From NCBI RefSeq assembly GCF_011064595.1, contig NZ_JAALJI010000001.1:124001-188000 (forward strand): a stretch of DNA of 64,000 nucleotides, written 5' to 3'. This document shows positions 269 through 4,650 of this stretch, in pieces. The DNA is from Paludisphaera soli (GTDB lineage Bacteria; Planctomycetota; Planctomycetia; Isosphaerales; Isosphaeraceae). Every line of letters begins with the position of its first letter. The stretch's first letter is position 1. A program made the translations under genes and the position numbers. The notes below the pieces were generated by a model. It did no database searches. It had not been told where the DNA came from and saw nothing but the letters and a program-made list of their open reading frames with translations.

Positions 269-1747
269 TCAGCCCCGCGCCCGCCGCGACCACGCATAGA
301 GCGCCACGGCCGTCGCCGTCGCCGCGTTGAGGGATTCGACGCCCTCGGCGATCGGGATGCGCCGCCTCGGCCCCCGTCGCAAGTGCTCGGGGAGGCCGGG
401 GCCCTCGACGCCCACGACCAGGCCGAAGGTCGCCGGGAAGGGCTCGGCGTCCAGGTCCTCGCCGGCGGCGTCGAGTGCGATCAAGGGGGTCGAGGAGTGC
501 AGCTCGCGAATCGACGGGCCCGTCATCAGTTCGGTCTGGAACAGCGCCGGGCCGGCGGCGCGGCTGGCGCGGGGGTGGAACGGGTGGGCCGCTTCTTGCA
601 GGAGGACCACGCGCGGGACGCCGAAGGCCGCAGCCGACCGGATCACCGCGCCCACGTTCTCCGGGTCCTGGAACGGCACGAACAGGGTGCAGCCCTCAGG
701 CCAGGGATCGGCGTCCGACCACGAAGGGATCGCCCGGGCCACGACGAGCAGGAGGGGCGCGTGCGTGCCGGCCGCGTCGAGGGTCTTGAACAGGGGCGTC
801 GACAGGCGGTGCCAGGTCCACGAGGCGTCGGCCGGGGGGGGGCCTTCGGAGTCGGTGATCCAGCCGACGACGCGGTCGGGGAAGCGTTCGGCGACCTCGG
901 CGGTGATCCTCGGGCCCGAAAGAATCGCCTGGCCGTGCTTGCGGACGCCCCGGCCGGTCAGCAGGTCGGAGAGCTGGCGAAACGTCGCGTTCGACTCGCT
1001 GGTGATCTCGCGGACGACCCCTTCGAAGGCCCGCGCGGCGCGCGCCGGGGCGTCCCTCGAGGAGAGCGGCGGGTCGGCGTCGGTCCGCTCGTAGACGACC
1101 AGCCGGCGGTCGTGGGTCGTGCCGGGGATCGAGTAGGCGTGGTCGGCCTCCAGGCGGAACTGGGCCTTCCAGTCGCGGTCGGCCTCCTCGATCTCGGGGT
1201 CGCAGCCGGGCCCCTTCATGAAGATCATCCGGCCGCCGGGCTCGATGCACGCGGCGACCCGCTCGAACGTCTCGGGGATCGAGGCCACCGCCCGGGTGAT
1301 GATCCCCCGGACCTTTCCGGGGTAATCCGGCCCCAGCTTGTGGGCGTAGACCTCGGTGCCCTCGAACCCCAGCCGCTCGCAGACCTGCCCCAGAAACTCG
1401 GCGCGGGCCGACCGGGGCTCGCACAGGATCATGTGGACTTCGGGCCGGGCGATCTTGAGCGGCACGCCGGGCAGCCCAGGGCCGGAGCCCATGTCGATCA
1501 GCGGCGAGGGGAGGTCGACGAACTGGAGGACCAGCAGGCTGTCGACGTAGTGCTTGAGGACCATGTTCTCGAAGTTGTGGATCCGCGTCATGTTCAACGC
1601 CGGATTCGCCGCGCGGAGCATCTGGTGATAGGTCCAGAGGGCGTCGTACTGGTCCGACGCCAGTTCCACGCCGCAATCGCGCAAGAGGGCCTCCAGGCCG
1701 CCACGTCCAGGTCTCAACGACGCCTCCCCCAACCGCTCGAACCGCAC
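269..1747 (-). CDS. rsmG: RsmG 16S rRNA G527 methyltransferase fused to a SpoU/TrmH-family RNA methyltransferase
   Basis: 492 residues, about twice the usual RsmG length. Residues 1-225 are RsmG (GidB): 'NMTRI' and 'HYVDSL' near the N-terminus, then the SAM loop 'DMGSGPGLPGVPLKI' and 'ITRAVA'. RsmG methylates N7 of G527 in 16S rRNA. From about residue 235 a SpoU substrate-binding-like segment starts ('ITSESNATFRQL'). The SPOUT catalytic domain follows, with motif 1 'DPENVGAVIRSAAAFG', motif 2 'VGVEGPGLP' and motif 3 'IPIAEGVESLNAATATAVALY'. That domain 2'-O-methylates tRNA or rRNA ribose in this family; the target here cannot be assigned. The two domains are joined in one continuous frame with no internal stop. 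The gene is divergent from the FtsH-like gene at 1960. Confidence 0.9.
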   Translation of the reverse strand: MRFERLGEASLRPGRGGLEALLRDCGVELASDQYDALWTYHQMLRAANPALNMTRIHNFENMVLKHYVDSLLVLQFVDLPSPLIDMGSGPGLPGVPLKIARPEVHMILCEPRSARAEFLGQVCERLGFEGTEVYAHKLGPDYPGKVRGIITRAVASIPETFERVAACIEPGGRMIFMKGPGCDPEIEEADRDWKAQFRLEADHAYSIPGTTHDRRLVVYERTDADPPLSSRDAPARAARAFEGVVREITSESNATFRQLSDLLTGRGVRKHGQAILSGPRITAEVAERFPDRVVGWITDSEGPPPADASWTWHRLSTPLFKTLDAAGTHAPLLLVVARAIPSWSDADPWPEGCTLFVPFQDPENVGAVIRSAAAFGVPRVVLLQEAAHPFHPRASRAAGPALFQTELMTGPSIRELHSSTPLIALDAAGEDLDAEPFPATFGLVVGVEGPGLPEHLRRGPRRRIPIAEGVESLNAATATAVALYAWSRRARG

Positions 1748-1959
1748 GAATGCCCGTCGCGTCGCGGGCGCGGCTCCATCGTACCCGCCCCGCGTCGAAG
1801 CGACGACGTCAAGAGCCGCCGGAACGGCTCGGCCGGCGAGTCGGCCGACTCGCGGGAGCCTCTCGATGCCGAGCGTCGGCTGTTTTCGTCTCGCCCGTCC
1901 GGTAGAATCGTCTCGTCTGGGCCGCCCTTTTTGCCAACGTCGCAGGAGATGGTTCGCTC

Positions 1960-2499
1960 GTGGATAAACGACAGATCTCGCGGCGGCTCGCCTTTCTGAG
2001 GATCCTCCCCAGGCCCCGGACCTGGGCGATCCTGCTGATCCTGGGTTTCCTCTTCTGGCAACTCATCCCCGATGCGGCGACCATGCCGTTCAATCCCTGG
2101 TTCCTCGATCAGGTCGAGGAGGGGAACGTCAAGAGCCTGATCCTGAACGGCCTGGAAGCCCATGGGGAGCTTCGTGAACCCCGGGAATTCCAGGCGAAGC
2201 CCGGAGCCGCTGCGATCCTCGTTCGGAGATACCGGACTCAATTTCCCACCGAGGCAGCGGTCCAATCCGCGGTCGACGACTTGATGACGGGAGGCGAGAC
2301 TCTTGAGGATCGCGTGCTGATCGAGAGGCGCGACGAAGTACGGCCCAACGAGACCGCCTCCCGGGTGCTGTTCACGAGCGCGATCGCGTCGCTCGCCTTC
2401 TGGTACGGCATGCGGAGAGGATACGCCTTGAAGGTCGCCGCCGACGCGGCGGGGCTCGGGACGGCTTCCCCGGAACCCCCCGGCCCCGCTACCCCCTGA
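1960..2499 (+). CDS. Truncated FtsH-like protein: membrane and extracytoplasmic domain only
   Basis: 179 residues. It starts with GTG, preceded by AGGAG at 1944-1948; a TAGAAT box at 1903-1908 could be its -10. A membrane segment ('WAILLILGFLFWQLIP') is followed by a soluble domain and a second membrane segment ('VLFTSAIASLAFWYGM'). It aligns collinearly with the first ~180 residues of the FtsH encoded 140 bases downstream. Shared blocks are 'NPWFLDQV', 'NVK.L', 'GELRE', 'FP.E..IQ/VQ' and 'EDRV.IE'. It then ends, with no AAA+ domain and no zinc protease domain. It therefore looks like a duplicated 5' half of ftsH, kept as a separate intact gene. It could insert into or modulate the FtsH hexamer (inference). 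It cannot itself be an ATPase or protease. Confidence 0.85.
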   Translation: MDKRQISRRLAFLRILPRPRTWAILLILGFLFWQLIPDAATMPFNPWFLDQVEEGNVKSLILNGLEAHGELREPREFQAKPGAAAILVRRYRTQFPTEAAVQSAVDDLMTGGETLEDRVLIERRDEVRPNETASRVLFTSAIASLAFWYGMRRGYALKVAADAAGLGTASPEPPGPATP

Positions 2500-2524
2500 C
2501 CTTCGGTCGCTTTTCCGCTACAAT
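2496..2524 (+). promoter_or_regulatory. Probable promoter of ftsH
   Basis: CTGACC (2496-2501), a 17-base spacer and TACAAT (2519-2524) match the -35/-10 consensus at 4/6 and 5/6 positions. The site starts inside the last codons of the FtsH-like gene, about 115 bases before the ftsH ATG. It would let ftsH be transcribed independently of its short paralogue. Confidence 0.5.
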
Positions 2525-2640
2525 TCCATGAACGCCCGTCGGTCGCCGTACCCCGAGTCCCCCCGAACGACCGGGAAGGGCCGGGCCGGGGCCTCCCGGA
2601 TGTTGTGACGCGTCGCCTTGGTTCTATAGAGTGAGACCGC

Positions 2641-4650
2641 ATGGAGAACCGACCTCAGCAGCAGGAGCCCCCGCGCCGGCCGTCGCCCCCTCCCGCCCGC
2701 AAGCCCAACGGGGCCGCGGGCCCGCCGACGCCCCCTTGGCTCTGGGTGATTCTCCTCGGGGGATTCGCCTTCATCTTCTGGCAGTTCATCCCCAAGCCCG
2801 AGACGTCCGTCCCCTACAACCCCTGGTTCCTCGACCAGGTGGACCAGGACAACGTGAAGGCCCTCTCGCTCATGGGGACCGAGGCGCGCGGCGAGTTGCG
2901 CGAGGCGCGGCCGTATCAGCCGTCGCCGACCTCCGCGACCGAGGTGGAAGTCCGGAAGTTCATCACCTATTTCCCGTCGGAAGACTCCATCCAGCCGGTC
3001 GTCGAGGCGCTTCGCAAGAAGGGCAAGAAGCCCGAGGACCGGGTGCGGATCGAGCCCAGCCCGGCGAACCAGGCCACCGGCGTCGTCTGGCTGATGCTCC
3101 TGCTGCCGACGTTCCTGATCCTCGGCTTCATTTACCTGATGATGCGCCGGGCCCGCGACCAGTTCGACGGCGGCATCCTCGGCAGCTTCGTCAAGAGCCC
3201 CGCCAAGCGGCACGACAAGTCCAAGCAGAGGACGACGTTCGAGGAGGTCGCCGGGCTGGAGAACGCCAAGGCGGAACTCCAGGAGATCGTCGAATTCCTC
3301 AAGAGCCCGGAGAAGTTCCAGCGCCTGGGGGGCCGGATCCCCAAGGGAGTGCTCCTGATCGGCCCTCCGGGCACCGGCAAGACCCTGCTCGGCCGCGCCG
3401 TGGCCGGCGAGGCGGGGGTGCCGTTCTACTCGATCTCCGGGTCCGAGTTCATCCAGATGTTCGTCGGCGTGGGCGCCAGCCGCGTCCGCGACATGTTCAA
3501 GACGGCCAAGGAGAACTCCCCCTGCATCCTGTTCATCGACGAGATCGACGCCGTCGGCCGGGTCCGCGGCGCGGGGCTCGGCGGCGGGCATGACGAGCGC
3601 GAACAGACCCTCAACCAGATCCTCACCGAGATGGACGGGTTCTCCCCCAGCGAGAGCGTCATCGTCCTGGCCGCCACCAACCGGCCCGATGTGCTCGACC
3701 CCGCCCTGCTCCGCCCCGGCCGGTTCGACCGCCACGTCACCGTCGACCTGCCGACCAAGAAGGGCCGGCTGGAGATCCTCAAGGTCCACGCCCGCAATGT
3801 CCCCCTCGCCGACGACGTCGACCTCGGCCGGATCGCGCGGAACACCGTCGGCATGAGCGGCGCCGACCTGGCCAACCTCGTCAACGAGGCCGCACTGCTC
3901 GCCACCCGCGAGGATAAGGCGGCCGTCGACGACAAGGACCTGGAGGCCGCGCTCGACAAGGTGGTCCTCGGGGCCAAGCGCGAGGAGGTCATCACCGACC
4001 GCGACAAACGGGCCACCGCTTACCACGAGGTCGGCCACGCCCTCGTCGCCTGGCTCACCCCCCGGTCCGACCCGGTGCACAAGGTCACCATCATCCCCCG
4101 AGGCCGCTCCCTCGGCGTGACCCAGTTCATGCCCGAGGAAGACCGCGTCAGCTACAACGAGAGCCAGATCAAGGCGCGGTTGTACAACGCGATGGGGGGC
4201 CGGGCCGCCGAGCGCCTGATCTACAACGACCTGAGCACCGGCGCCGCCCAGGACCTCGACCACGCCACGCGGCTCGTCCGCAAGATGGTCACCCAGTGGG
4301 GCATGAGCGAGCGCGTGGGCCCGGTCTCGTTCCGCTCCAGCTCCGAGCACCCGTTCCTCGGCCGCGAGATGTCCGAGCCTCGCGACCACTCGGAGCACAT
4401 GCAGCAGATCATCGACGAGGAGGTCGCCCGCATCCTCCGCGAGGCCGAGGAGCACGCCTTCCGCCTCCTGGAGGAGCATCGCGACGAGCTGGAACGCCTG
4501 ACCGAGGCCCTCATCGAGAAGGAAGTCCTCACCGAGTCCGAGATCACCCAGCTCATCGGCAAGCGCTCCGGCCACGTCGAGCCCGAGGCCGCCGGCGCCG
4601 CCGCCCCGGACGGCGGCGAGGTGGTGGCGTCGCTGGACAACCCGAGCTGA
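2641..4650 (+). CDS. ftsH: ATP-dependent zinc metalloprotease FtsH
   Basis: 669 residues, normal for FtsH. A proline-rich cytoplasmic head is followed by TM1, an extracytoplasmic domain and TM2 near residues 145-165. The AAA+ module has Walker A 'GPPGTGKT' (241-248), Walker B 'LFIDEID' with D300/E301, and an arginine-finger 'RPGRFDR' region. The M41 protease domain carries the zinc motif HEVGH (462-466). FtsH is a membrane-anchored hexamer that degrades misfolded membrane proteins and short-lived regulators. Its N-terminal part is clearly paralogous to the 179-residue protein encoded just upstream. A strong hairpin follows the stop codon. Confidence 0.97.

What the first reader, a model, noticed from the sequence alone, without database searches (positions are those of the whole stretch)
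1960..2499. Stand-alone FtsH N-terminal domain beside full-length FtsH
The sequence shows a 179-residue protein collinear with the first ~180 residues of the adjacent FtsH (shared [19 protein letters not shown] blocks and both membrane spans) but ending before the AAA+ and protease domains. FtsH is known to work as a homohexamer, and extracytoplasmic partners (HflK/C, prohibitins) limit it. A truncated paralogue could enter the hexamer or occupy FtsH partners, an inference for a new FtsH regulator. The frame is intact and has its own ribosome site, so it is not an obvious pseudogene.
Basis: partly seen in the sequence, partly recalled or inferred. Interest (0 to 1): 0.78.

Follow-up and report, generated by a model that had tools for sequence, protein, structure and literature searches.

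The report
Stand-alone membrane half of FtsH protease
A planctomycete carries, just before its normal FtsH membrane-protease gene, a second small gene that makes only FtsH's membrane and outer part without the engine or blades; in two related species it appears to be kept by selection, so it may be a natural partner or decoy for the protease.

Summary
ORF 1960-2499 (+) encodes a 179-residue protein homologous to the window FtsH from TM1 to TM2 (50% identity over 107 residues), ending before the linker, AAA+ and protease domains. An AlphaFold2 model puts its periplasmic part on E. coli FtsH N-domain structures (1.6 Å over 63-65 residues). A second species of the genus (2 of 6 genomes) has a diverged intact copy at the same place; the two form one clade nested in the genus. 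They evolve fast, yet neutrality at protein level is rejected for the pair. Residues conserved in FtsH are kept in the periplasmic domain and lost in the linker. A third, independent, younger copy (1 of 45 genomes of the order) also ends right after TM2; it cannot firmly be told from neutral. No degraded remnant was found upstream of ftsH in the 35 other genomes with usable flanks. So this is a narrowly distributed, patchy FtsH membrane-module paralogue rather than an obvious remnant. The best mechanism, inferred and untested, is a decoy subunit that co-assembles with FtsH or occupies its HflK/C-type partners. I saw no precedent in eight paper searches. The regulator idea is plausible, not shown.

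The parts
1960..2499 (+). stand-alone FtsH N-terminal module (TM1, periplasmic FtsH_ext-type domain, TM2), 179 aa, GTG start
   Evidence: AlphaFold2 model and fold match
1880..1908 (+). promoter-like CTGTTT-17-TAGAAT upstream of the short gene (-10 ends 51 nt before GTG); G002 has CTGACG-17-TAGAAT 53 nt before its start
   Evidence: weak, not reported by the consensus scan; no such box seen for the G019 copy
1944..1948 (+). SD-like AGGAG, 11 nt before GTG
   Evidence: sequence
2496..2524 (+). ftsH promoter-like site CTGACC-17-TACAAT; TACAAT with a CTGA(C/T/A)C hexamer 17 nt before it lies upstream of ftsH in the 7 genomes compared; the short gene's TGA stop lies in its -35 hexamer
2641..4650 (+). 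full-length FtsH, 669 aa (FtsH_ext-like region, AAA, M41)
   Evidence: TIGR01241 794 bits
269..1747 (-). neighbour: RsmG (GidB) fused to a SpoU-type rRNA methylase, divergent from the short gene

Best explanation
A partial tandem duplication copied the start of ftsH (TM1, periplasmic domain, TM2) to a place directly upstream of ftsH in an ancestor within this genus; it has been kept since in at least two species as a small two-span membrane protein. SHOWN BY COMPUTATION: homology, predicted fold, intact frame, single clade for the two copies, protein-level constraint with preference for FtsH-conserved periplasmic residues, release of the cytosolic linker. INFERRED: the protein folds like the FtsH periplasmic domain in the cell and meets FtsH or its HflK/C-type partners through the same surfaces, acting as a decoy or spacer subunit. 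It would take membrane slots in an FtsH ring without supplying an ATPase, or occupy HflK/C, and so lower or retarget FtsH action.
For: Homology and fold: (4v0b Z 9.1, 1.6 Å over 63 residues; 7wi3 Z 8.8, 1.6 Å over 65). Diverged copy in G002: (clade support 98.1/98). Pairwise codon model between the two copies: w 0.08 (F3x4) or 0.19 (F1x4), w=1 rejected with 2dlnL 44.5 and 24.9. Amino-acid identity to G004 ftsH 0.41 and 0.37 against 0.23-0.27 in neutral simulations of equal nucleotide divergence. FtsH-conserved periplasmic columns kept 14 of 18 and 13 of 18, other periplasmic columns 26 of 67 and 16 of 67, linker conserved columns 3 of 12 and 2 of 12. Two hydrophobic peaks in each copy. Literature: E. 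coli FtsH particles that had lost the cytosolic domain showed a C6 periplasmic domain and hexameric TM density (PMC13097134, passages and section 15); the TMs are said to help hexamerisation (PMC13039401, section 9); mutations in the FtsH periplasmic domain affect binding to HflK/C (PMC13220708, passages). The genome has 2 full FtsH and 7 Band_7 matches, two of them neighbours on one contig.
Against: No binding, expression or phenotype data. Present in only 2 of 6 genomes of the genus, absent from G004, the sister of the window's genome. Branches are about 20 times longer than those of the FtsH of the same genomes, so interface residues may be gone; in the TM2 region only 3 of 8 FtsH-conserved columns are kept, and the TM2 peak of the window copy is weakly hydrophobic (1.09). 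GC3 0.80-0.83 against 0.94-0.95 for the first 200 codons of ftsH of the same genomes suggests weaker codon selection. The independent G019 copy is not firmly distinguishable from neutral.
Confidence: 0.42

Rival explanations
1. The duplicate is kept by selection but has moved to a job of its own: a small two-span membrane protein with an FtsH_ext fold that no longer meets FtsH.
For: Very long branches (0.67 and 1.17 after a 0.52 stem) against 0.03 and 0.05 for the FtsH of the same genomes; 10 residues shared by both copies and by no FtsH of the genus, two of them in the doubtful tail; linker and C-terminal tail replaced.
Against: Periplasmic residues conserved in FtsH are those preferentially kept, and in both genomes the gene sits directly beside ftsH.
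Confidence: 0.27
2. A non-functional partial tandem duplicate, open by chance in GC-rich DNA and on its way out.
For: Patchy presence and probable loss; a third copy arose independently in G019 and is compatible with neutrality in two of three tests (2dlnL 0.62 with F1x4, 0.33 in the tree model; 7.1 with F3x4); chance of an open frame under neutral change 0.02-0.17 per copy.
Against: w=1 rejected for the G000-G002 pair under both codon-frequency models; identity to ftsH well above neutral simulation; conserved sites preferentially kept; no broken copy found upstream of ftsH in the 35 other genomes with usable flanks.
Confidence: 0.2
3. The reading frame serves as a cis element: transcription through the short gene crosses the ftsH promoter, which overlaps its stop codon, and tunes ftsH expression.
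For: The stop codon lies in the -35 hexamer of the conserved ftsH promoter-like site; the scan found no terminator-like site between them.
Against: In G003 and G004 another gene, similar to the LigB-type dioxygenase of G002, ends at the same TGA of that block, so the overlap is not special to this gene; a cis role would not keep periplasmic amino acids.
Confidence: 0.08

Closest known systems
FtsH AAA+ zinc protease (TIGR01241), N-terminal TM1-periplasmic-TM2 part
   Same: Same fold in the model, 50% identity over 107 residues to the neighbouring FtsH, same order of TM and periplasmic parts.
   Different: No linker, AAA+ or M41 protease domain; no NCBIfam match at E <= 0.01.
FtsH_ext, PF06480
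   Same: Structure match to E. coli FtsH periplasmic domains (4v0b, 2muy); the G019 copy passes the Pfam cut-off (31.2 against 25.5 bits).
   Different: The window protein scores 12.3 bits and the G002 copy 17.4, below the cut-off of 25.5; a stand-alone architecture.
FtsHi, proteolytically inactive FtsH homologues of plastids
   Same: Non-proteolytic FtsH relatives (recalled; PMC11266112 seen as a search listing, PMC9020784 as listing and passages).
   Different: FtsHi keep an AAA+ motor and lose the protease motif (recalled); here the motor is absent altogether.
Small FtsH inhibitors such as lambda CIII
   Same: A small protein that inhibits FtsH (PMC1838920, start of the abstract in the listing).
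   Different: CIII is not an FtsH paralogue (recalled); the present protein is derived from FtsH itself, and no inhibition is shown.

Membership tests
FtsH protease (TIGR01241) | TM1, periplasmic domain, TM2 | tested here: met
   TM2 of the window copy is only weakly hydrophobic
FtsH protease (TIGR01241) | AAA+ ATPase domain | tested here: not met
   ORF ends at 2499 before any such domain; no AAA match in Pfam or NCBIfam
FtsH protease (TIGR01241) | M41 zinc protease domain | tested here: not met
   absent
FtsH protease (TIGR01241) | conserved linker after TM2 ([10 protein letters not shown] in the FtsHs compared) | tested here: not met
   3 of 12 and 2 of 12 conserved columns kept in the two genus copies
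FtsH_ext PF06480 | sequence score over the curated cut-off | tested here: not met
   12.3 bits against 25.5; the full FtsH of the window also falls just short, 24.1
FtsH_ext PF06480 | fold of the FtsH periplasmic domain | tested here: met
   AlphaFold2 model pLDDT 84.5; 4v0b Z 9.1, 1.6 Å over 63 residues; unrelated ribosomal proteins also score Z 6 to 8.1
FtsH decoy or regulator | binds FtsH or its partners | not testable with these tools
   needs pull-down, crosslinking or mixed-ring structure prediction
FtsH decoy or regulator | protein sequence under selection | tested here: met
   for the G000-G002 pair; inconclusive for the G019 copy

The most novel reading that the evidence does not exclude
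A natural FtsH membrane-module decoy: a paralogue stripped to TM1-periplasmic domain-TM2 that enters FtsH rings or HflK/C-type cages and tunes membrane proteolysis, and that Isosphaeraceae have invented at least twice by partial duplication next to ftsH, both times ending soon after TM2.
Probability: 0.3. Interest if true: 0.75.

Novelty: new variant of a known kind. Interest (0 to 1): 0.5.

Why it matters
What the membrane and periplasmic parts of FtsH do apart from the motor, and how substrates and HflK/C use them, are described as unresolved in recent papers (PMC13097134 and PMC13039401, passages and single sections seen). A bacterium that has already separated this module and seems to keep it under selection would give a natural separation-of-function allele and a way to test whether the membrane module alone can control FtsH or HflK/C.

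Tried and rejected
Rejected: chance ORF (E 8e-29). Rejected: assembly artefact, since the window contig is 790 kb and another genome in 9 contigs (G002) has a copy at the same place. Rejected: use of the shared C-terminal GP.TP tail as proof of orthology; it is promoter DNA. Rejected as parallels: short FtsH_ext frames in G471 (179 aa) and G607 (187 aa) and a 409-residue frame in G546; they run into the linker and the AAA domain, with further FtsH pieces downstream, so they look like interrupted full ftsH genes. Not resolved: G133:C37 (251 aa) lies at a contig edge and was fetched but not analysed; G492:C227 (407 aa) was not followed; the second match of G126 was not listed. No match in phages or plasmids at E <= 0.001.

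Unreliable: the branch-model fit ran to its bounds (w 0.008 and 20, branch lengths of 12-20); only its tests against w=1 are used, and lightly. Counting (NG86) values (dN/dS 0.43 and 0.63) disagree with the codon model (0.08-0.19) because synonymous sites are near saturation; the direction is supported, the size is not. Synonymous divergence between the two copies (pS 0.54-0.65) exceeds that of five compared genes (0.25-0.35); relaxed codon choice may explain it (the unconserved part of the ftsH leader also differs much), an older split is not excluded. The neutral simulation uses G004 ftsH as a stand-in ancestor and two assumed compositions. Outside the order the profile survey is insensitive to fast-evolving copies (187 of 397 class genomes matched), and the listings were cut.

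Papers: 8 of 10 searches used (one search listed 15 of 1,189). None of the titles and abstract starts shown named a stand-alone FtsH N-domain gene; most subscription papers are not held, so this is weak evidence of absence.

Full report
OBSERVATION. ORF 1960-2499 (+), GTG start, 179 aa, is intact. Alignment is good from TM1 to the start of TM2; the FtsH linker after TM2 is not retained and the tail does not align. Pfam sees FtsH_ext only weakly (12.3 bits, cut-off 25.5; the neighbouring FtsH 24.1). NCBIfam gives nothing for the short protein at E <= 0.01. The genome (7.97 Mb, 197 contigs) has no further match to it, but has two FtsH proteases with an M41 domain and seven Band_7 matches, two side by side on contig C110.

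STRUCTURE. With only the window FtsH as companion, AlphaFold2 gave pLDDT 64.8. With 26 sequences (window plus loci) it gave 84.5, mostly 94-96 per ten-residue block from 41 to 110. The order is helix 19-35 (TM1), a mixed alpha/beta domain, helix 131-166 (TM2 and beyond). Best matches among solved structures are FtsH periplasmic domains: 2muy Z 9.4 (5.6 Å, 81 residues), 4v0b Z 9.1 (1.6 Å, 63 residues), 7wi3 Z 8.8 (1.6 Å, 65 residues). Two ribosomal proteins reach Z 8.1, so fold similarity alone would be weak; with the sequence homology it is clear.

DISTRIBUTION. In the genus, 2 of 6 genomes have the extra gene: the window's (G000) and G002, where a 181-aa ORF lies directly upstream of ftsH. 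In the family and order, 45 genomes were held; 41 matched, and 3 had a second, stand-alone copy: G000, G002 and G019. A permissive scan of the held flanks of ftsH in those 41 (1.35-2.5 kb upstream in 38; under 240 nt in G020, G025 and G030, where contigs end) found no diverged remnant in the other 35 with usable flanks. In the class, 187 of 397 genomes matched and the listed rows show no other stand-alone copy except one frame at a contig edge. Across the phylum sample (294 genomes, 191 matched by PF06480) three short frames that I checked look like interrupted ftsH genes. None in phages or plasmids.

ORIGIN. In a tree of 44 N-domains over 139 columns the G000 and G002 copies form a clade (98.1/98), placed inside the genus beside G000 FtsH (79.8/73), on long branches; the G019 copy is sister to G019's own FtsH (97.4/100). 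So there were at least two duplications. The two genus copies share 10 residues not found in any FtsH of the genus, two of them in the doubtful tail. A five-gene tree makes G000 and G004 sisters (94 and 95% ultrafast bootstrap; G005 had only ftsH), so G004 has lost the gene or G000 and G002 obtained it by exchange. The nucleotide tree puts G002 outside the rest, which would need further losses; the protein tree does not, with weak support (60). In G003 and G004 a gene resembling the LigB-type dioxygenase of G002 ends at the TGA in the ftsH promoter block; G002 has both dioxygenase and short gene; in G000 only the short gene lies between rsmG and ftsH. Both independent duplications end soon after TM2: the G019 protein stops at MMRRARGG, the genus copies carry an unrelated tail.

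SELECTION. Codon model for the G000-G002 pair: w 0.076 (F3x4) or 0.191 (F1x4); w=1 rejected, 2dlnL 44.5 and 24.9. Counting methods give 0.43 to 0.63 with near-saturated synonymous sites, so the size is uncertain. Identity to G004 FtsH is 0.41 (135 codons) and 0.37 (138 codons); neutral simulations at equal nucleotide divergence give 0.23 to 0.27, sd about 0.025, and an open frame in 2 to 17% of runs. In the periplasmic part, columns in which at least 80% of FtsHs have the genus residue are kept in 14 of 18 (G000) and 13 of 18 (G002), other columns in 26 of 67 and 16 of 67 (Fisher p 0.007 and 0.0004); linker conserved columns are kept in 3 of 12 and 2 of 12. In the TM2 region only 3 of 8 conserved columns are kept in each, although the stretch stays moderately hydrophobic (peaks 1.09 and 1.95 against 2.45 in FtsH). 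For G019, w is 0.31 (F3x4, w=1 rejected weakly, 2dlnL 7.1) or 0.73 (F1x4, not rejected), identity 118 of 141, and 14 of 22 changes assigned to the short copy are replacements: no firm evidence of function there.

EXPRESSION SIGNALS. ftsH has a conserved promoter-like site, CTGACC-17-TACAAT in the window (2496-2524), with close variants in the seven genomes compared; the short gene's stop lies in it. Both genus copies have a TAGAAT box ending 51 and 53 nt before the start with CTGTTT or CTGACG 17 nt upstream, possibly a copied ftsH promoter; this is suggestive only, and the G019 copy showed no such box.

MECHANISM. Known biology: FtsH works as a hexamer; its TMs are said to help hexamerisation and take part in substrate choice (PMC13039401, section 9 read, other passages seen). 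E. coli FtsH particles that lost the cytosolic domain show a C6 periplasmic domain and hexameric TM density (PMC13097134, passages and section 15); they may have assembled before the loss. Mutations in the FtsH periplasmic domain affect binding to HflK/C (PMC13220708, passages). The linker after TM2 is needed for proteolysis in Aquifex FtsH (PMC7949044, passages). From these I infer that a membrane-bound N-module could join FtsH rings or occupy HflK/C-type cages without a motor, acting as a decoy. This is the best-supported function (0.42), ahead of a separate new role (0.27), a relic (0.20) and a cis effect (0.08).

VERDICT. An intact FtsH-derived membrane protein gene with narrow distribution and signs of selection in two species; new variant of a known kind. 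The genus is perhaps Paludisphaera; that name is recalled, from no call.

Noticed in passing
window 269-1747 (-): RsmG (GidB) 16S methyltransferase fused to a SpoU-type rRNA methylase in one 492-aa protein; homologous ORFs of similar alignment length (about 480-490 residues) upstream of ftsH in G001-G004.
   Followed up: partly
window 2488-2527 and upstream of ftsH in 6 other genomes: Conserved block CTACCC(C/A)CTGA...TACAAT before ftsH; in G000, G002, G003 and G004 the stop codon of the upstream gene is embedded in its -35-like hexamer.
   Followed up: partly
L077, L078, L079: Interrupted ftsH genes in three genomes of one family outside the class, which carry three or four FtsH_ext matches each.
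   Followed up: partly
L035, L036, L037 upstream of ftsH: A LigB-type dioxygenase gene sits between rsmG and ftsH in G002, G003 and G004 but not in the window genome or G001.
   Followed up: partly
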